Positions 1 to 6,964 of a DNA stretch of 10,742 nt are shown piece by piece. The position numbers and the translations under genes are program-made. Within the stretch, counting starts at the first letter, position 1; every line of letters starts with the position of its first letter. This stretch comes from Endomicrobium sp. (GTDB taxonomy: Bacteria; Elusimicrobiota; Endomicrobiia; Endomicrobiales; Endomicrobiaceae): assembly GCA_031273885.1 (NCBI GenBank), contig JAISRA010000138.1:1-10742 (forward strand), written 5' to 3'. A model generated the notes under the pieces. The model did no database searches and had not been told where the DNA came from. It worked only from the letters and a program-made list of their open reading frames with translations.

Positions 1-519
1 TACAATAAGTTGCCGTTAATGCTGAGTAAAAGTCTTGAATCTACTGGAACGGAAAAAATATTAAATCTTGAAGAAGTTTTGAAATACATACCTCACAGAT
101 ATCCATTTTTGATGATAGATAAAGTAAAAATGAATTCAGCTGATCCTACAAAAGCAGTAGGTTATAAATGCGTAAGTGGTAATGAAAGCTTTTTTCAAGG
201 GCATTTCCCAAACGCGCCTATAATGCCAGGAGTTTTAATTGTTGAAGCGATGGCTCAGACATCGTGCGTTATGTTTCTTTCAAGACCTGAAATGAAAGGA
301 TGTCTTGCTTATTTTATATCTATAAATAAAGTGAAGTTTCGCAGAATTGTAAAACCCGGTGATGTTCTTGAATTGCGTGTGGAAATTATAAAAGACAGTG
401 GTAGGCGTGGAAAAATGAAGGGTGAAGCTTATGTTGACAGAAAATTAACAACTGAAGCTGAATTTATGTTTATCATTGTAGATAAGGAGCAATATGATAC
501 ATCAGACAGCAATAATTGA
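1..519 (+). CDS. fabZ: 3-hydroxyacyl-ACP dehydratase FabZ (5'-partial; possibly C-terminal domain of an LpxC-FabZ fusion)
   Basis: FabZ dehydrates (3R)-hydroxyacyl-ACP to trans-2-enoyl-ACP in cytoplasmic type II fatty acid synthesis. It competes with LpxA for the same hydroxyacyl-ACP pool. The hot-dog fold signature is plain: PHRYPFLMIDKV near the start, then GHFPNAPIMPG with the catalytic His codon at 202-204, and VEAMAQ carrying the catalytic Glu. The frame is open to the first base (YNK precedes the first possible starts, TTG at 10 and ATG at 19), and neither start has a Shine-Dalgarno. The gene may therefore continue upstream. LpxC-FabZ fusions are known in Bacteroidetes and, as I recall, in Elusimicrobiota, and a fusion would fit this operon. 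A stand-alone FabZ starting at 19 (about 166 residues) is also possible, because the region before the domain is only a little longer than in E. coli FabZ. The 3' end overlaps lpxA by 26 bp. Confidence 0.93.
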   Translation, partial: YNKLPLMLSKSLESTGTEKILNLEEVLKYIPHRYPFLMIDKVKMNSADPTKAVGYKCVSGNESFFQGHFPNAPIMPGVLIVEAMAQTSCVMFLSRPEMKGCLAYFISINKVKFRRIVKPGDVLELRVEIIKDSGRRGKMKGEAYVDRKLTTEAEFMFIIVDKEQYDTSDSNN

Positions 520-1267
520 TGATGATGCAATTATCGAAGATAATGTAGAGATAGGCCCATATGCAGTTATAGGACATGAAACAACTATAAAAAGTGGTAC
601 AAGAATACATGGACAATGCGTAATTGAGCACGCTGAAATAGGCAGCAACTGCGAGATTTTTAATTTTTCATCGGTTGGTAAACATCCTCAAGATTTAAAA
701 TATAAAGGAGAAAAGACAAAAATTATAGTTGGTGATGGGACTGTTATAAGAGAATGCGTTACATTGAACAGAGGGACTACGGCACTAGGACAAACCGTCA
801 TTGGAAAAAATTGTTTGCTTATGTCGTGCGCGCATATCGCGCATGACTGTATAATAGGGAACGGAGTAATAATTGGCTATTCGACGGGTATTGCCGGACA
901 TGTCGAAATAGGGAATTATGCAATTTTAAGTGCAGGTATAGGCGTTCACCAGTTTTGCAAGATCGGCACGTCCGTAATGATAGGTGCAGGTGCAATGGTT
1001 AGTATGGATATTGTTCCTTATGTAACAGCGCAAGGCGATAGAGCTGTTCTTGCAGGATTAAATCTTATCGGTCTAAAAAGAAGGAAAATAAAACTTTGTG
1101 AAATTGAAGATATAAAATCTGCTTACAAAATATTGTTTATGTCTAAACTAACATTGGAAGATGCAATGTTAAAACTTAAAGATTCACAGTCCACTTACGT
1201 TAAAGATATAACAGCTTTTATAAAAAATTCCCAAAGAGGCATTGCAAGACCGAGAATTGGAAAGTAA
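494..1267 (+). CDS. lpxA: UDP-N-acetylglucosamine O-acyltransferase LpxA, copy 1
   Basis: LpxA carries out the first step of lipid A synthesis: it moves a 3-hydroxyacyl chain from ACP to position 3 of UDP-GlcNAc (or UDP-GlcNAc3N). The 257-residue protein is close to E. coli length. It has a left-handed beta-helix of hexapeptide repeats (IGPYAVIG, IGNGVIIG, VEIGNYAI), then a helical C-terminal domain. Visible motifs are PQDLKY (65-70), AHIAHD with the catalytic-type His117, AGHVEIG with His136, VHQF with His152, GDRA (181-184) and GLKRR (193-197). The position matching E. coli ruler residue Gly173 is Ala165. The start ATG has AAGGAG at 484-489, four bases upstream and inside the fabZ coding region, so translation is probably coupled. 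It is followed 43 bp later by a second lpxA. Catalytic residues are complete, so it should be active; the exact acceptor sugar and chain length cannot be read directly. Confidence 0.97.
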   Translation: MIHQTAIIDDDAIIEDNVEIGPYAVIGHETTIKSGTRIHGQCVIEHAEIGSNCEIFNFSSVGKHPQDLKYKGEKTKIIVGDGTVIRECVTLNRGTTALGQTVIGKNCLLMSCAHIAHDCIIGNGVIIGYSTGIAGHVEIGNYAILSAGIGVHQFCKIGTSVMIGAGAMVSMDIVPYVTAQGDRAVLAGLNLIGLKRRKIKLCEIEDIKSAYKILFMSKLTLEDAMLKLKDSQSTYVKDITAFIKNSQRGIARPRIGK

Positions 1268-1296
1268 TATATGAAATTGATGAACAACGTAAATGC

Positions 1297-1303
1297 AAGA
1301 GAG
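1297..1303 (+). promoter_or_regulatory. Ribosome binding site that fixes the lpxA copy 2 start
   Basis: AAGAGAG lies seven bases before ATG 1311. An in-frame upstream ATG at 1293 has no such site and would add six residues (MQESFI) before the conserved MIHQTA start shared with copy 1. The site therefore supports 1311 as the true start. Confidence 0.6.
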
Positions 1304-1310
1304 CTTTATT

Positions 1311-2117
1311 ATGATACATCAGACTGCTGCAATTGATAAGACAGCTGTTATAGGAGATAATGTACAAATCGGCGCTTATACCGTAATAGGGAAAGACGTT
1401 GTAATTGGCGACGGTACAGTAATAGGCTCAAACGCTTATGTTGAATATGCTGAAATAGGTAAAAACTGTAAAATTTACAATTCAGTATCAATTGGCACAC
1501 CACCTCAGGATTTGGGTTATAATAATGAGCCTTCAAAAGTTTATGTTGGTGGTGGTACTACGGTCAGAGAATTCGTAACTTTTAACAGAGGTACAAAAAA
1601 AACCGGTAAAACCATAATAGGTAAGAATTGTTATTTCATGATATCGTCGCATGTGGCACATGATTGCTGTATTGGCAATAATGTTATTATGGCAAATTGT
1701 TCTGCGGCGGCTGGGCATGTTGAAATAGGAGAAGGTTCTTTTATAAGCGGGCTTGTTGGTATTCATCAGTTTACAAAAGTTGGCAAGGGTACAATGGCAG
1801 GAGTTGGTTCTGTTGTTACTATGGATATAATCCCGTACGCTTTGTGCACAGGGGACAGAGCAAGACTTGTTGGTTTAAATTTAGTTGGTATGAAAAGAAA
1901 AAAAATATCGCTTGAAGAAATTAATGCTATAAAAGACGCTTACCATGTACTTTTTATGTCAAAGCTTTTGCTTAAAGATGCCTTGATAGAGATAGAAAGT
2001 AGTAAGTCTATTTGTGTGCAGGAAATAGTGAATTTTATAAAGAATTCCAAAAGAGGAATAGCGCGACCTGAGCGAATAATAAAGAGTAAAGAGAAAAATA
2101 TTAAATGGAAGATATAG
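1311..2117 (+). CDS. lpxA: LpxA paralogue, copy 2 (UDP-GlcNAc/GlcNAc3N acyltransferase)
   Basis: This is a second complete LpxA-type acyltransferase of 268 residues, placed in tandem after copy 1. The two align without a gap over 257 positions with 139 identities by hand count (about 54%), so the duplication is old or the copies have separate origins. The beta-helix repeats and active-site set are kept: SHVAHD with His117, AGHVEIG with His136, IHQF with His152 and GDRA. Two substrate-region differences stand out. The motif PQDLGY has Gly69 where copy 1 and E. coli (Lys76) have Lys. The ruler position (E. coli Gly173) is Val165, against Ala165 in copy 1. A bulkier residue there shortens the acyl chain in characterised LpxA enzymes. 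The C-terminus runs about eleven residues past that of copy 1 (IIKSKEKNIKWKI tail) and overlaps lpxI by 13 bp. Acyltransferase family is certain; the division of labour is inference. Confidence 0.94.
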   Translation: MIHQTAAIDKTAVIGDNVQIGAYTVIGKDVVIGDGTVIGSNAYVEYAEIGKNCKIYNSVSIGTPPQDLGYNNEPSKVYVGGGTTVREFVTFNRGTKKTGKTIIGKNCYFMISSHVAHDCCIGNNVIMANCSAAAGHVEIGEGSFISGLVGIHQFTKVGKGTMAGVGSVVTMDIIPYALCTGDRARLVGLNLVGMKRKKISLEEINAIKDAYHVLFMSKLLLKDALIEIESSKSICVQEIVNFIKNSKRGIARPERIIKSKEKNIKWKI

Positions 2118-2905
2118 GACTTATCGCTGGGAACAATAGATTTCCTTTTTTGGTTGCCGAAGAGATAAAAAGAAGTGGCAATAAAGTTATTTGTATTGCA
2201 TTAAAAGAAGAAGCGGATTCCGAGTTATGGAAAATTTGTGACAAAATTTATTGGATTTCTGTCGGAAGATTCCAGAAAATCATAGATGCCCTAAAAAGTG
2301 AAAAAGTAAAAACTGTTATTATGGCAGGGCAAGTAAAACATGTTACAATTTATTCTGCAATAGGTATGGATTGGCGAGCGATAAAGGTGATGGGGGGTGT
2401 GATTAATAAAAAAGCAGATACTATTTTAAAAACTATTGCTAGCGAGTTTGAAAAAGACGGAATGAGTTTAATCCCGTCACATACCTACCTAAAGCATTTG
2501 CTTGCTCCAAGAGGTTTGATTTCGGGCAAAAAACTTTCTACAAGTGAGAGTAAAGATGTTGAATTTGGATATAAAATAGCGAAAAGCATTTCTGGTTTTG
2601 ATATTGGACAAACGGTTGTTGTAAAAGATAAGTCTGTCCTTGCAGTTGAGTCGGTAGAAGGCACCGATGAATGTATTAAGCGTGCATACAAACTTGGTGG
2701 AGAAAATTCTATAGCTGTTAAGGTTGCAAAACCAAATCAAGATTTCAGATTTGACGTACCTGTAGTAGGCGTTAATACAATCGACATTCTGGAAGAAAAT
2801 AAAGTTAGGGCAATGGCAATAGAGGCTGAAGCGACATTAATATTGGATAAAAATGAAGTTGTGGAAAAAGCAAAAAAAGCCGGTGTAACTATGATTGGAA
2901 TATAA
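2105..2905 (+). CDS. lpxI: UDP-2,3-diacylglucosamine pyrophosphatase LpxI (DUF1009)
   Basis: LpxI hydrolyses UDP-2,3-diacylglucosamine to 2,3-diacylglucosamine 1-phosphate (lipid X) and UMP. It replaces LpxH in bacteria such as Caulobacter. The 266-residue protein has the family features: an N-terminal start GLIAGNNRFPFLVAEE (5-20), the MAGQVKH segment (73-79), a C-terminal half with AVESVEGTDE (180-189), and QDFRFDVPVVG (212-222), which matches the DxRFDxP motif holding the conserved acidic residue of the active site. ATG 2105 lies inside the end of lpxA copy 2, with AAAGAG at 2088-2093 upstream at a rather long 11-base spacing. Its place between lpxA and lpxB fits the pathway order. The product would feed LpxB together with the remaining UDP-diacyl sugar. 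Identification rests on several motifs over the whole length and is firm. Confidence 0.95.
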   Translation: MEDIGLIAGNNRFPFLVAEEIKRSGNKVICIALKEEADSELWKICDKIYWISVGRFQKIIDALKSEKVKTVIMAGQVKHVTIYSAIGMDWRAIKVMGGVINKKADTILKTIASEFEKDGMSLIPSHTYLKHLLAPRGLISGKKLSTSESKDVEFGYKIAKSISGFDIGQTVVVKDKSVLAVESVEGTDECIKRAYKLGGENSIAVKVAKPNQDFRFDVPVVGVNTIDILEENKVRAMAIEAEATLILDKNEVVEKAKKAGVTMIGI

Positions 2906-2978: not shown

Positions 2979-4067
2979 ATGATAAGTATGACTTACCCAA
3001 TTATTGGGAAAAGAGAAAGACAGTGTATTAAAGAAGTTTTAGATTCAAGAATTCTTGCAAGTGGTAAATATGTCGCTCAGTTTGAGCAATCTTTTGCAAA
3101 ATATTCAGGGACAAGGTTTGGCATCGCAAATGCAAACGGAACAACTTCTCTTCATACCGCTTTGTTAATGTGTGGCGTTAAAGCTGAAGATAAAGTTGTT
3201 ACAACACCTTTTTCGTTTATAGCAACTTCAAATTCTATTCTTTTCTGCGGTGCCAAGCCTGTTTTTGTAGATATTGATCCTAAAACTTTTAATATAAATC
3301 CTGTTGAGCTTGAACAAATATTGAGAAAAGAAAAAAATGTGAAAGCTGTTCTGATAGTTCATTTGTATGGATTACCTTGCGATATGGATGCAATTCTTAG
3401 ACTTAAGAAGAAATATAAATTTAAACTTATAGAAGATTCTTGCCAGGCACACGGCGCTGAATTTAAAAGTAAAAAAGTAGGGTCTTTTGGAGATGCATCC
3501 GCGTTTTCGTTCTATGCTACGAAAAATATGATGACTGGTGAAGGTGGAATTATTCTTACAAATGATACTAGAGCTAATAAATTTGGAAGGCAAATTATAA
3601 ATCACGGCAGAAACGGACATTGTACGCATACTATTCTTGGGTATAATTATAGACTTACCAATCTTGCCGCGGCAATAGGGATAGCTCAGCTTGAACAGCT
3701 TGAAGATTGGATTGCAAAAAGAATTGCAAATGCTAAAAAATATAACGAAGCTCTTAAAGATTTGGATTTTTTGCAAATACCTTTTGTTCCAAAAAATTAT
3801 AAGCATGTTTTTCATCAGTATACTGTAAGAATTGCAGCAAAAGAAAAGAGAAAATTTATTAAATATCTTGCAAAAAACGGGGTAGGCAGTGGAATTTACT
3901 ATAATTCTGTAATATATAAGCAGCCGTTTTATAAACAGTTAGGATATAGGGTGGGTTTATGCAAAAATGCTGAAAAGATCGCTCGAGAAGTATTGTCTCT
4001 TCCGGTGCATCCTTCTCTTACGAAAACCGATACCGATAAAATAATTGAAGTAATAAAAGGTTATTAA
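2979..4067 (+). CDS. DegT/DnrJ/EryC1/StrS-family PLP-dependent sugar aminotransferase, GnnB-like
   Basis: This is a fold-type I aminotransferase of the family that aminates nucleotide-linked keto-sugars. Seen in the 362 residues: NANGTTSLHTAL (51-62), which binds the cofactor phosphate; TPFSFIATSN (76-85); IEDSCQAHGA (151-160) with Asp153, expected to hold the PLP ring nitrogen; and FSFYATKNMMTGEGG (176-190) with Lys182 as the Schiff-base lysine. No key residue is missing. It is followed after 2 bp by an NAD-type sugar dehydrogenase, and the pair sits between lpxI and lpxB. In Acidithiobacillus ferrooxidans and Leptospira, GnnA (dehydrogenase) and GnnB (aminotransferase) make UDP-GlcNAc3N, and in A. 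ferrooxidans they lie between lpxA and lpxB. The inferred reaction is therefore transfer of an amino group, probably from glutamate, to UDP-3-keto-GlcNAc. The broad family is certain; the GnnB role is context-based, and an O-antigen amino-sugar role is the alternative. Confidence 0.9.
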   Translation: MISMTYPIIGKRERQCIKEVLDSRILASGKYVAQFEQSFAKYSGTRFGIANANGTTSLHTALLMCGVKAEDKVVTTPFSFIATSNSILFCGAKPVFVDIDPKTFNINPVELEQILRKEKNVKAVLIVHLYGLPCDMDAILRLKKKYKFKLIEDSCQAHGAEFKSKKVGSFGDASAFSFYATKNMMTGEGGIILTNDTRANKFGRQIINHGRNGHCTHTILGYNYRLTNLAAAIGIAQLEQLEDWIAKRIANAKKYNEALKDLDFLQIPFVPKNYKHVFHQYTVRIAAKEKRKFIKYLAKNGVGSGIYYNSVIYKQPFYKQLGYRVGLCKNAEKIAREVLSLPVHPSLTKTDTDKIIEVIKGY

Positions 4068-4069
4068 AA

Positions 4070-5005
4070 ATGGGCATAAGGACAGCCGTAATTGGAGTAG
4101 GTTCTTTAGGTCAGTATCATGCAAGAATTTTGGCTCGACATTCTAATTCTAAATTAGAATTTGTTGTTGATACGGATAAAAAAAGAGCTGAAAAGATCGC
4201 AGAAGTAAATAAAACAAATTATTTAACAGATTTTAACGAGCTTATAGGAAAAGTTGATGCAGTCGTAATTTCTGTACCGACACATTATCATTACAAGATT
4301 GCAAAGCCTCTTTTGCAAAGTGGAATACATTGTCTTGTTGAAAAACCTTTTACTTTAAGTGTTAAAGAAGCACAAATACTTATAGAAATAGCAAAAGTTG
4401 GAAATTTGGTTTTACAGGTTGGACATGTTGAGAGATTTAACCCAGCAGTAATTGCTGCAGCTCCGTTTGTAAACGGTCCAAAGTTTATAGAAGTTAGCAG
4501 ATTAGGCCCTTATGATCCGAGAATTAATCACGTCGGTGTGGTGCTGGATTTAATGATACACGATTTAGATATTTTATTTTTTCTTGTAAGGGATAAAGTT
4601 GTTTCTTTTGAAGCCCACGGCGCAAAAATACTTTCTGACACTGAAGATATTGCAAAGGTCAGATTAAAATATGCAAATGGTTGTATAGCGGATGTTTCTG
4701 CAAGCAGAGTTTCAATGGAAAAATATAGAAAAATAAGAATTTTTCAACCTGATAGTTATATTTCTATAGATTATGCCGGAAAAAATCTTAAAGTTTATGC
4801 AAAAAAAAATGGAAAAGAAAAAATAACTTCTCTTCTTGATATAGATATAAAAAAACCTAAACTGCCATCAAACGAACCTCTTTTTTATGAACTTGATAAT
4901 TATTTAACCAACGTAATTGAAGGTAAAAAACCTATTGTTTCTGGTGAACAAGGAAGAGATGCCGTGGAACTTGCTATTAATATTCTAAAAAACATGGCTT
5001 TTTGA
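4070..5005 (+). CDS. Gfo/Idh/MocA-family sugar oxidoreductase, GnnA-like
   Basis: This cytoplasmic NAD(P)-dependent dehydrogenase has 311 residues. The N-terminal Rossmann fold shows GVGSLG (9-14) and an acidic residue after strand two (VVDTD, 32-36), which favours NAD over NADP. VEKPFTL (90-96) carries the conserved Lys92 of the EKP motif. LDLMIHDLDI (159-168) supplies the Asp/His catalytic region of the C-terminal domain, typical of family members acting on sugars. ATG 4070 is 2 bp after the aminotransferase stop, with AAAAGG at 4055-4060 as Shine-Dalgarno, so the two genes are almost surely co-translated. By comparison with GnnA, the inferred reaction is oxidation of the 3-hydroxyl of UDP-GlcNAc to a ketone, which the neighbouring aminotransferase then aminates. 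Family assignment is firm; substrate is inferred from the lipid A operon. Gfo/Idh/MocA genes also occur alone in lpx clusters of other phyla. Confidence 0.9.
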   Translation: MGIRTAVIGVGSLGQYHARILARHSNSKLEFVVDTDKKRAEKIAEVNKTNYLTDFNELIGKVDAVVISVPTHYHYKIAKPLLQSGIHCLVEKPFTLSVKEAQILIEIAKVGNLVLQVGHVERFNPAVIAAAPFVNGPKFIEVSRLGPYDPRINHVGVVLDLMIHDLDILFFLVRDKVVSFEAHGAKILSDTEDIAKVRLKYANGCIADVSASRVSMEKYRKIRIFQPDSYISIDYAGKNLKVYAKKNGKEKITSLLDIDIKKPKLPSNEPLFYELDNYLTNVIEGKKPIVSGEQGRDAVELAINILKNMAF

Positions 5006-5141: not shown

Positions 5142-6224
5142 ATGATAAATAATAAGATATTCGTTTCTGCTGGCGATTTGTCGGGTGAGATACATGCCTC
5201 AAATCTAGTAAAAGAGATAAAAAACATCAATCCTTTGTGCCGTATTTCCGCAGTTGGTGGTAATAATTTGAAATCCATAGCTGATGATTTCCTTGAAGAT
5301 ATAGTAAATATACATGCTTTCGGATTTTTACCTATAAAACAAATAGTTTATTTAAAAAAAGTTTTTAAAAAAATAGAAAACCATTTTAGTAAAGACCGGC
5401 CTGATAAGATTATACTTGTTGATTATTACGGATTCAATATATATATTGCAAGGTTTGCAAAAAAAATAAATATTCCAGTTTATTATTATATTAGTCCTCA
5501 AGTTTGGGCATCTCGTAGTGGAAGAATAAAAAAACTGGCTGCTACTGTAAAGAAAATGCTTGTTATTCTGCCTTTTGAGGAAAAATTGTATAAAGATAAC
5601 GGCATTGATGCAGTTTTTGTTGGCAATCCTTTGATAGACAGAGTGCCTGAAAAACAAAAAATCGATATATTAAATCCTCCTCCTATTATTGGATTATTTC
5701 CGGGCAGCAGAAAGAGTGCGATTAAACGCCATATGCCGATAATTATTGAAACTGCGAAAATACTTAAAGAAAAAATAAATGCAAAATTTATAATATTTAG
5801 CACCACAGATGCTGAGTTTAATTATAATTTACCTAAATATATTGATTTAGATATTTCAGGTAGTTTTGAAAAAAGAAAAACTGTTGATTTTGCAATTTGT
5901 TCATCAGGTACTGTCAGCCTTGAAAATGCTTTAATGGGTATCCCGATGGTTGTAATGTACAAATTGTCATATTTTAATTATTTTTTGATAAGAGCGATTA
6001 TAAAAATAAAATATATATCTATAGTAAATATCCTAGCGAATAAAGCCATTGTGCCTGAATTTATACAGTTTGACGCAAATTCTAGTAAAATCGCCTTATC
6101 AGTAATAAAACAGTTAAAACCAGAAAAATACATGCCAAAAGTCAAAGAACTTCTTTTATTTAGGGATATGCTTGGAATAATTGGTGTAAGTAAAAGAGCA
6201 GCTGAAATTATTTTAAATGATTAA
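5142..6224 (+). CDS. lpxB: Lipid-A-disaccharide synthase LpxB
   Basis: LpxB is a membrane-associated GT-B glycosyltransferase (family GT19). It joins UDP-2,3-diacylglucosamine to lipid X, giving the beta-1,6 disaccharide of lipid A and UDP. The 360 residues are somewhat shorter than E. coli LpxB (about 382). Motifs in order: SAGDLSGEIHAS (9-20), the N-terminal nucleotide-sugar loop; LVDYYGFN (92-99) with the conserved Asp94; ISPQVWASR (117-125); GLFPGSRKS (184-192); CSSGTVSLENALMGIPMVV (253-271), the donor-binding region; and NILANKAIVPEF (296-307). The acidic pair in the first motif is GD..GE, where most LpxB proteins have GE.SGD; this conservative swap should not abolish function. The ATG has only a weak purine-rich upstream tract (AAGATAAGATAATA). 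It is the last recognisable gene of the lipid A cluster. Confidence 0.96.
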   Translation: MINNKIFVSAGDLSGEIHASNLVKEIKNINPLCRISAVGGNNLKSIADDFLEDIVNIHAFGFLPIKQIVYLKKVFKKIENHFSKDRPDKIILVDYYGFNIYIARFAKKINIPVYYYISPQVWASRSGRIKKLAATVKKMLVILPFEEKLYKDNGIDAVFVGNPLIDRVPEKQKIDILNPPPIIGLFPGSRKSAIKRHMPIIIETAKILKEKINAKFIIFSTTDAEFNYNLPKYIDLDISGSFEKRKTVDFAICSSGTVSLENALMGIPMVVMYKLSYFNYFLIRAIIKIKYISIVNILANKAIVPEFIQFDANSSKIALSVIKQLKPEKYMPKVKELLLFRDMLGIIGVSKRAAEIILND

Positions 6225-6772: not shown

Positions 6773-6964
6773 CTATATTGTTTTTCTTACTTTGTTTGAC
6801 TTAATACAAGAAGTGCAGACGTATTCACGAGTTTTTTTACCGTCCAAAATAATGTTTAAACTTTGAAGATTAGGTCTAAAAAGTCTCTTTGAAGCTTTAT
6901 TTGAATGACTTATTGTATTTCCTGATGTGGACCCTTTGCCACAAACTATACATTTGTAAGACAT
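6773..6964 (-). CDS. rpmB: 50S ribosomal protein L28
   Basis: This small basic protein of the large ribosomal subunit has 63 residues, the usual size for bacterial L28. It opens with YKCIVCGKG and contains [16 protein letters not shown], the characteristic L28 core. CxxC at 5-8 (CIVC) and a second CxxC at 50-53 (CTSC) form a probable zinc-ribbon site, so this is the C+ version of L28. ATG 6964 (reading down) has a strong Shine-Dalgarno, GGGAGG, ten bases upstream. An ATG inside that spacer is followed at once by a TAA stop, so it cannot be the start. The gene stands alone, divergent from recG and convergent with lpxB, and has its own promoter. No clear terminator was found after the TAG at 6773-6775. 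Confidence 0.97.

What the first reader, a model, noticed from the sequence alone, without database searches (positions are those of the whole stretch)
2979..5005. GnnA/GnnB-like pair in the lpx operon predicts GlcNAc3N-type lipid A
A Gfo/Idh/MocA dehydrogenase and a DegT-family aminotransferase, 2 bp apart, sit between lpxI and lpxB. GnnA and GnnB convert UDP-GlcNAc to UDP-GlcNAc3N, giving lipid A with amide-linked chains at position 3; in A. ferrooxidans they lie between lpxA and lpxB. Linked with the doubled lpxA, this suggests a dual-sugar pathway: one LpxA for the ester substrate, one for the amide.
Basis: partly seen in the sequence, partly recalled or inferred. Interest (0 to 1): 0.75.

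Follow-up and report, generated by a model that had tools for sequence, protein, structure and literature searches.

The report
Lipid A operon with two LpxAs
A termite-gut type bacterium carries, inside its operon for the lipid anchor of its outer membrane, a dehydrogenase and an aminotransferase that probably build a variant sugar, next to two diverged copies of the first enzyme of the pathway, so it may make a mixed-sugar membrane lipid that can be tested in a cultured relative.

Summary
A DegT aminotransferase (2979-4067) and a GnnA-like Gfo/Idh dehydrogenase (4070-5005) lie 2 bp apart between lpxI and lpxB, in an operon with two lpxA genes, in an Endomicrobium-like Elusimicrobiota. The dehydrogenase looks like GnnA and is an old lpx-operon gene in this phylum, often with no aminotransferase beside it. 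The aminotransferase does not group with gnnA-linked proteobacterial GnnB; it lies on the perosamine-synthase side of the family. Still, it directly precedes gnnA in 54 of 54 related loci that hold both. The two LpxAs stem from one duplication inside the family; both are under purifying selection. LpxA2 lost the sugar-pocket lysine (E. coli K76) in 39 of 39 copies scored; LpxA1 keeps it in 45 of 45. A strict split (LpxA1 for GlcNAc, LpxA2 for GlcNAc3N) is contradicted: a subclade without lpxA2 keeps gnnA and the aminotransferase under purifying selection, and gnnAB-linked LpxAs elsewhere keep K76. The two-lpxA explanation of a hybrid lipid A is already in print for Capnocytophaga canimorsus. 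The cultured Endomicrobium proavitum has the same operon, so analysis of its lipid A would decide.

The parts
1..519 (+). 3' part of an LpxC-FabZ fusion gene (FabZ domain), cut by the contig end
   Evidence: best NCBIfam match PRK13188 profile positions 317-463; the open frame with the FabZ match is 450-451 codons long in G083 and G086
494..1267 (+). lpxA1: acyltransferase paralogue 1 (keeps K76)
   Evidence: TIGR01852 289.7 bits, cut-off 231.05; in LpxA1 clade; K at site 76
1293..2117 (+). lpxA2: acyltransferase paralogue 2 (G at site 76)
   Evidence: TIGR01852 288.2 bits; in LpxA2 clade; best PDB matches 3r0s and 3hsq; G at site 76
2105..2905 (+). lpxI: UDP-2,3-diacylglucosamine pyrophosphatase
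   Evidence: PF06230 and PF17930 over cut-off; NCBIfam LpxI model 140.7 bits, below its cut-off of 400
2979..4067 (+). DegT/DnrJ/EryC1/StrS sugar aminotransferase; proposed GnnB function, not grouping with GnnB
   Evidence: PF01041 389.4 bits; motif SFYATKNMMTGEGG with PLP lysine; tree; AlphaFold pLDDT 91.5 and sugar-aminotransferase fold
4070..5005 (+). gnnA-like Gfo/Idh/MocA dehydrogenase (UDP-GlcNAc 3-dehydrogenase type)
   Evidence: PDB 7bvj E 7e-54, next hit 5e-17; best NCBIfam NF040723 UDP-GlcNAc 3-dehydrogenase 219.2 bits, below cut-off 450; EKPF and DLMIHDLD kept
5142..6224 (+). lpxB: lipid-A-disaccharide synthase
   Evidence: TIGR00215 206.9 bits, cut-off 190.25

Best explanation
The GnnA-like enzyme oxidises C3 of UDP-GlcNAc and the neighbouring aminotransferase aminates the 3-keto sugar, giving UDP-GlcNAc3N that enters lipid A in the same operon. 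The aminotransferase came to this position independently of the proteobacterial GnnB, next to a GnnA that was probably already in the lpx operon. The ancestral LpxA (K76, single copy) worked beside this pair. It was duplicated once in the Endomicrobiaceae; LpxA1 stayed able to serve the pathway alone, and LpxA2 changed its sugar pocket and acyl tunnel. The most likely product is a lipid A with at least some GlcN3N (amide-linked chain at position 3), perhaps a mixed GlcN3N/GlcN backbone. Shown: genes, order, phylogeny, selection, residue changes. Inferred: the two reactions, their regiochemistry, the role of each LpxA, and the lipid A structure.
For: GnnA: one outstanding solved relative and active-site motifs. 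Pairing: in 54 of 54 fetched loci that hold both genes the aminotransferase is the next recognised gene before gnnA on the same strand, including G080, G083, G084, G088, G090, G091, G092 and G097, where the pair lies away from lpxA-lpxI. Selection: median dN/dS among g1 genomes (pairs with dS 0.05-1.0) lpxA1 0.137, lpxA2 0.178, aminotransferase 0.169, gnnA 0.146, lpxI 0.138, lpxB 0.201. Linkage: hand tally, two full lpxA in 39 of 83 genomes of the order, all 39 with an operon-type aminotransferase match (partial in G062, G077 and G082). One duplication: LpxA1 44 rows 100/99, LpxA2 38 rows 100/100, sisters 99/87. Precedent: C. canimorsus has lpxA, lpxA', gnnA and gnnB and a >95% GlcN3N'-GlcN backbone (PMC3342949, passages). 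Elsewhere a second lpxA directly follows gnnA-gnnB in G136 and G141.
Confidence: 0.6

Rival explanations
1. The two LpxAs divide acyl chains, not sugars: both accept the same UDP sugar or sugars but load 3-hydroxyacyl chains of different length.
For: Positions in or near the E. coli acyl tunnel differ between the copies: 156 (LpxA1 mostly S/G, LpxA2 mostly L/N/T), 171 (mostly I/V against T/V/A), 173 (A/G against V/S/G/A). G173 and H191 affect chain length in E. coli (PMC6286764, passages). It fits lineages that keep either copy alone with gnnA and the aminotransferase.
Against: It does not explain the loss of the sugar-contacting K76 in 39 of 39 LpxA2.
Confidence: 0.4
2. Strict dual-sugar split: LpxA1 acylates only UDP-GlcNAc, LpxA2 only UDP-GlcNAc3N, giving an ordered hybrid backbone.
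For: LpxA2 of the window scores higher to 3hsq and 3r0s (186.8 and 189.9 bits) than LpxA1 does (165.2 and 172.8), and LpxA1 scores higher to 1lxa (199.4 against 176.5); I recall these chains as Leptospira, C. jejuni and E. coli LpxA. Site 76 is G in 3hsq and S in 3r0s. C. canimorsus precedent.
Against: G001, G013, G027 and G063 have only lpxA1 yet intact gnnA and aminotransferase with dN/dS 0.12-0.23. Single-copy LpxAs scored beside the pair have K76, and gnnAB-linked LpxAs of G121, G136 and G141 keep K76. Non-K76 LpxAs occur with no gnnB nearby. Single-copy LpxAs score as high to 3hsq and 3r0s as LpxA2 does (medians 177-188.5 and 186-190 against 173 and 179), so LpxA2 moved away from the E. 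coli type rather than towards 3hsq.
Confidence: 0.15
3. The pair makes a different amino sugar (for example a C4-amino sugar, or one for surface polysaccharide) and lies in the lpx operon by chance.
For: The aminotransferase groups with GDP-perosamine synthase; public sources name it dTDP-4-amino-4,6-dideoxygalactose transaminase or perosamine synthetase.
Against: GnnA is a 3-dehydrogenase type and an old lpx-operon gene; in the window no sugar dehydratase and no glycosyltransferase other than lpxB was recognised, and none in the six loci read by eye (no family search there); WbpB-like Gfo/Idh proteins are a separate clade.
Confidence: 0.18
4. LpxA2 is a surplus copy kept by dosage or drifting towards loss.
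For: It evolves faster than LpxA1 (dN higher in 191 of 210 genome pairs), three copies have V at the H160 position and one has Y at H144, and one subclade has lost it.
Against: Median dN/dS 0.178, catalytic H122, H125, D126 and G143 unchanged in 39 of 39 scored, and presence in nine genera of the family (g1, g21-g28).
Confidence: 0.15

Closest known systems
GnnA/GnnB pathway of Acidithiobacillus ferrooxidans (Sweet et al. 2004; known here from citing papers PMC8036547 and PMC5644692, passages)
   Same: GnnA-type dehydrogenase next to a sugar aminotransferase among lpx genes (their place between lpxA and lpxB in A. ferrooxidans is recalled; G121 has the order lpxA-gnnA-gnnB-lpxB)
   Different: The aminotransferase is from another branch of the family (judged from gnnA-linked proteobacterial GnnB, not from the A. 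ferrooxidans protein itself); gene order is aminotransferase then dehydrogenase, after lpxI; two lpxA
Capnocytophaga canimorsus lipid A genes (PMC3342949, passages)
   Same: Two lpxA genes plus gnnA and gnnB; the authors link two lpxA to the hybrid GlcN3N'-GlcN backbone and to the different acylation of positions 3 and 3'
   [quoted passage not shown] another phylum; here the genes are in one operon and lipid A is unknown
WbpB/WbpE of the Pseudomonas O-antigen pathway (PMC10622841, passages)
   Same: C3 oxidation, then C3 amination by a PLP enzyme, on a UDP sugar
   Different: Different clades for both enzymes; acts on the uronic acid, for O-antigen
Leptospira LpxA (3hsq; selectivity for UDP-GlcNAc3N recalled; Robins 2009 seen only as a title in a reference list)
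   Same: No lysine at site 76; Y and F at 116-117 as in most LpxA2
   Different: LpxA2 arose by duplication inside Endomicrobiaceae; selectivity untested

Membership tests
GnnA (UDP-GlcNAc 3-dehydrogenase) | Closest solved relative is a GnnA, apart from WbpB and inositol dehydrogenases | tested here: met
   7bvj 7e-54 against 5e-17 for the next; three WbpB-like rows apart, 100 SH-aLRT. That 7bvj is GnnA is recalled; no call names it
GnnA (UDP-GlcNAc 3-dehydrogenase) | Groups in a tree with GnnA that is paired with GnnB | tested here: inconclusive
   7bvj on a long unplaced branch; L069, L080, L094, L102 GnnA fall in a set of 12 with unpaired genes of other lineages, not with the window's
GnnA (UDP-GlcNAc 3-dehydrogenase) | EKP lysine and histidine motif | tested here: met
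   EKPF and DLMIHDLD aligned with 7bvj
GnnA (UDP-GlcNAc 3-dehydrogenase) | Passes the curated cut-off of the archaeal model NF040723 | tested here: not met
   219.2 bits against a cut-off of 450
GnnA (UDP-GlcNAc 3-dehydrogenase) | Oxidises C3 of UDP-GlcNAc with NAD+ | not testable with these tools
   needs enzyme assay
GnnB (UDP-3-keto-GlcNAc aminotransferase) | PLP-dependent DegT enzyme with catalytic lysine | tested here: met
   PF01041; SFYATKNMMTGEGG; K182 among the invariant columns of 33 sequences
GnnB (UDP-3-keto-GlcNAc aminotransferase) | Groups with gnnA-linked GnnB and WbpE | tested here: not met
   other side of a 100/99 branch, 40 rows; four gnnA-linked GnnB from other phyla used, the A. 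ferrooxidans GnnB itself was not available
GnnB (UDP-3-keto-GlcNAc aminotransferase) | Encoded next to gnnA | tested here: met
   window and 54 of 54 fetched loci that hold both
GnnB (UDP-3-keto-GlcNAc aminotransferase) | Fold nearest to C3 rather than C4 enzymes | tested here: inconclusive
   7b0d 49.3, PerA 49.0, QdtB 48.6, DesV 48.1 (Z); PerA first in Foldseek
LpxA | Equivalog cut-off and catalytic residues | tested here: met
   both copies over 231.05 bits; H122, H125, D126, G143 and H144 kept in both window copies
UDP-GlcNAc3N-selective LpxA (Leptospira type) | Residue change in the sugar pocket at site 76 | tested here: inconclusive
   non-K in 39 of 39 LpxA2, G in 3hsq, S in 3r0s, but K in gnnAB-linked LpxA of G121, G136, G141
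C. canimorsus-type hybrid lipid A system | Two lpxA, gnnA and gnnB in one genome | tested here: met
   gnnB by position only
C. canimorsus-type hybrid lipid A system | GlcN3N-GlcN backbone in the lipid A | not testable with these tools
   needs mass spectrometry or NMR

The most novel reading that the evidence does not exclude
Endomicrobiaceae make an asymmetric GlcN3N/GlcN lipid A by a self-contained operon in which an aminotransferase of the perosamine-synthase branch was recruited as a second, non-orthologous GnnB onto an ancient orphan GnnA, and in which a duplicated LpxA then specialised for the new sugar (LpxA2) beside a broad-range LpxA1.
Probability: 0.3. Interest if true: 0.65.

Novelty: new variant of a known kind. 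Interest (0 to 1): 0.5.

Why it matters
GlcN3N lipid A has been described in scattered groups. If confirmed it would extend to Elusimicrobiota, show that the GnnB step arose more than once, and give a cultured organism (E. proavitum) in which to ask what two LpxAs are for. The lpxI-gnnA-lpxB arrangement without an aminotransferase, seen in several phyla, becomes an open question of its own: what the dehydrogenase does there.

Tried and rejected
K76 as a marker of GlcNAc3N use was my best lead. It failed as a general marker: gnnAB-linked LpxAs of G121, G136 and G141 keep K, and many LpxAs without gnnB nearby lack it. NCBIfam ranking of the aminotransferase as PseC-like was rejected as uninformative, because gnnA-linked GnnBs also rank PseC first. 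By sequence alone the best solved match of the aminotransferase is 7b0d (252 bits), which lies on the GnnB/WbpE side of the tree, and QdtB (227) scores near perosamine synthase (237), so the grouping rests on the tree and the motif, not on the top hit. The motif is not perfect either: L271 on the GnnB/WbpE side has YGEGG, and two rows there have no match to the pattern. Similarity of LpxA2 to 3hsq and 3r0s is weak support only. Structure comparison did not separate C3 from C4 enzymes. Ten neighbouring ORFs of second lpxA copies gave no clue. A conserved stretch after lpxB looked like an RNA; Rfam gave nothing and it proved to be rpmB on the other strand (one search was read in a wrong frame). 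Literature: no paper was found by the searches for Elusimicrobia with lpxA and lipopolysaccharide or for at least four of lpxI, lpxB, Gfo Idh MocA, oxidoreductase, gnnA and operon; Robins 2009 is not held.

Rows dropped before counts: G019, G066, G043, G046, G051, G053 and ORFs under 215 aa were left out, and one of the two G035 copies (one search shows K in both G035 copies and in G046, G051 and G053, R in G043). In one search G019 and rows under 215 aa were left out, and the window's own LpxAs were added only (quick method). In the DegT tree 17 of 61 operon aminotransferases were used. One search used 28 g1 genomes and, for the medians, pairs with dS 0.05-1.0. One search counts open frames scoring 150 bits or more in the 98 loci.
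Full report
WHAT IS THERE. The window is one whole contig (C61) of a 0.92 Mb, 143-contig genome. Best named matches of its dehydrogenase are Endomicrobium and Endomicrobiia records at 81-85% identity, so it is an Endomicrobium-like Elusimicrobiota. The + strand reads: end of an LpxC-FabZ fusion gene, lpxA1, lpxA2, lpxI, DegT aminotransferase, GnnA-like dehydrogenase, lpxB, recG, a MATE transporter. The lpx genes are packed: fabZ and lpxA1 overlap, lpxA1 and lpxA2 are 25 bp apart, lpxA2 and lpxI overlap, and aminotransferase and dehydrogenase are 2 bp apart. lpxK is elsewhere in the genome. The LpxC domain was not found in the assembly, as expected if the gene is cut by the contig end.

THE DEHYDROGENASE. 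Its one outstanding solved relative is 7bvj/7bvk (7e-54; next 5e-17). I recall this entry as GnnA of A. ferrooxidans; the record calls it only an NAD-binding oxidoreductase, and no held paper mentions it. The best curated family is UDP-GlcNAc 3-dehydrogenase (archaeal model), below its cut-off. EKPF and DLMIHDLD are shared with 7bvj. In a 53-row tree (quick method, SH-aLRT only) it lies with lpx-linked relatives from several phyla and far from three WbpB-like proteins; 7bvj itself sits on a long branch whose place is unsure, and GnnAs paired with proteobacterial GnnB are no closer to it than unpaired ones. Within Elusimicrobiota the gene sits before lpxB in genomes with and without the aminotransferase: of the fetched loci, all 14 from outside the order and those of G036, G039 and G040 have gnnA with no aminotransferase. 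So it was in the operon first, or the aminotransferase was lost several times.

THE AMINOTRANSFERASE. It is a DegT enzyme with the PLP-lysine motif SFYATKNMMTGEGG. Four aminotransferases next to gnnA in other phyla (L069, L080, L094, L102), WbpE and QdtB carry the form SF(F/Y)PxKxLxxxGDGG. In a 40-row tree the 17 operon enzymes form one clade (100/100), joined with GDP-perosamine synthase and four other Elusimicrobiota DegT proteins (some PseC- or ArnB-like by motif, recalled), across a 100/99 branch from the gnnA-linked GnnB, WbpE and QdtB. L069 GnnB scores 318 bits to WbpE, 309 to QdtB and 214 to perosamine synthase; the window enzyme scores 185, 227 and 237, and 252 to 7b0d, a chain on the GnnB/WbpE side. 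No GnnB/WbpE-type enzyme was found in the window's genome at 1e-70 (genome 87% complete). An AlphaFold model (pLDDT 91.5) matches C3 and C4 sugar aminotransferases about equally. So by descent it is not a member of the GnnB group tested here; that it works like GnnB is inferred from its partner. The partnership is strong: in 54 of 54 fetched loci that hold both, the aminotransferase directly precedes gnnA among the recognised genes, on the same strand. The pair stays together in eight genomes where it lies away from lpxA-lpxI (G080, G083, G084, G088, G090, G091, G092, G097), and the neighbours read in G080, G083, G088 and G092 did not look like a polysaccharide cluster (judged by eye from sequence starts, not by family search).

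THE TWO LpxAs. Both are full LpxAs with intact catalytic residues. One duplication in the family explains them: LpxA1 44 rows (100/99) and LpxA2 38 rows (100/100) are sisters (99/87), nested among single-copy relatives; the window's own copies fall in these clades. G035, in another family, has a separate tandem pair. Diagnostic changes: LpxA2 has no K at site 76 in 39 of 39 (S 32, G 4, N 2, C 1), LpxA1 has K in 45 of 45 and single-copy LpxA K in 25 of 25 scored. In E. coli, K76 contacts the glucosamine ring oxygen (PMC6286764, figure legend) and is listed among essential residues (PMC4322802, passage). LpxA1 has its own changes, for instance at 45-46, 65, 70-71, 137, 140 and 156. Both genes are under purifying selection; LpxA2 is faster.

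THE NATURAL EXPERIMENT. One subclade (G001, G013, G016, G027, G028, G063; 98/97) has lpxA1 and no lpxA2 that was found. In five of them the matched ends of lpxA1 and lpxI are only about 12-150 bp apart, too short for a gene; G028 has a contig break there and stays unsure. In G001, G013, G027 and G063 gnnA and the aminotransferase are intact, with pairwise dN/dS of 0.12-0.23, like their lpxI and lpxB. So the pair has work without LpxA2. In G016 both gnn-type genes have decayed while lpxA1, lpxI and lpxB remain. In G023 lpxA1 is in pieces in three frames while lpxA2 and the pair are intact. Thus LpxA1 can serve alone with or without the pair, and LpxA2 was seen alone only with the pair (one case). 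That contradicts a strict split and fits a broad LpxA1 with a more specialised LpxA2, or an acyl-chain split.

WIDER PATTERN. Two full lpxA occur in 39 of 83 genomes of the order, all 39 with the operon-type aminotransferase; 28 have one lpxA match (in G002 and G028 a partial one), 21 of these with the aminotransferase (hand tally; G019 with broken copies not counted). These are not independent: they trace to two duplications. Among 49 further genomes reached through the loci (other Elusimicrobiota and other phyla), 9 have two lpxA; in two of them (G136, G141) the second follows gnnA-gnnB directly, with another lpxA beside lpxB elsewhere. Both linked copies keep K76, as does the single LpxA of G121 in the order lpxA-gnnA-gnnB-lpxB.

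WHAT IS KNOWN. GnnA and GnnB convert UDP-GlcNAc for GlcN3N lipid A in A. ferrooxidans, and loss of gnnA and gnnB in C. jejuni changes TLR4 activation and peptide sensitivity (PMC8036547, passages). The two-lpxA explanation of a hybrid backbone was published for C. canimorsus in 2012 (PMC3342949, passages); of the two papers listed only this one holds the words 'two lpxA'. [quoted passage not shown] the words lpx, lipid A and gnnA do not occur in its main text (PMC11257099, passages). The E. proavitum announcement gives 1,588,979 bp and says that LPS biosynthesis, interrupted by pseudogenes in the endosymbiont, is intact there (PMC4505116, passages). G070 has the same length, and its aminotransferase is listed under E. 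proavitum on a 1,588,979-base contig.

VERDICT. Observation confirmed; interpretation partly supported. The pathway prediction (GlcN3N-containing lipid A) is plausible, about 0.6 (lowered from 0.62 on checking, for the LptD report and the unplaced 7bvj); the strict two-sugar split is unlikely, about 0.15.

Noticed in passing
L036-L112 and G036, G039, G040 and 14 Elusimicrobiota loci L143-L156: A GnnA-like dehydrogenase without a neighbouring aminotransferase lies beside lpxI or lpxB in loci of Acidobacteriota, Aminicenantota, Nitrospirota, Planctomycetota and others, and in Elusimicrobiota outside the aminotransferase-bearing lineages. G040, G054 and G114 lack a GnnB/WbpE-type enzyme at 1e-70. 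What it does there is unexplained.
   Followed up: partly
L241, L243 (G136, G141): Betaproteobacterial module gnnA-gnnB-lpxA with a second, unlike LpxA that has E where E. coli has H144, beside a normal lpxA-lpxB elsewhere in the genome.
   Followed up: partly
L245, L246, L250, L252, L254, L256: Second LpxA copies in six genomes all lack K76 and have no gnn genes recognised nearby; neighbours give no hint.
   Followed up: partly
window 6773-6964 minus: rpmB (ribosomal protein bL28, 63 aa, TIGR00009 66.9 bits) between lpxB and recG, missed by ORF length cut-offs.
   Followed up: yes
L163 (G016), L157 (G026), L166 (G066), L165 (G019), L127 (G023): Decay of the operon in related genomes: gnn-type genes decayed but lpxA1-lpxI-lpxB intact in G016, lpxA1 alone broken in G023, lpxA-lpxI-gnn-lpxB in pieces in G066, lpxA absent and gnn and lpxB decayed in G026, broken lpxA pieces in G019.
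   Followed up: partly
L137 (G035): An independent tandem lpxA pair, both with K76, in another family of the order that also has the aminotransferase.
   Followed up: partly
L113, L117, L126 (LpxA2 of G025, G022, G011): The H160 position is V in three related LpxA2 copies although the genes are otherwise intact.
   Followed up: no
G005 (C11, C15) and G073 (C8, C111): Two copies of gnnA (G005) and of the aminotransferase (G073) on different contigs; mixed strains or true copies.
   Followed up: no
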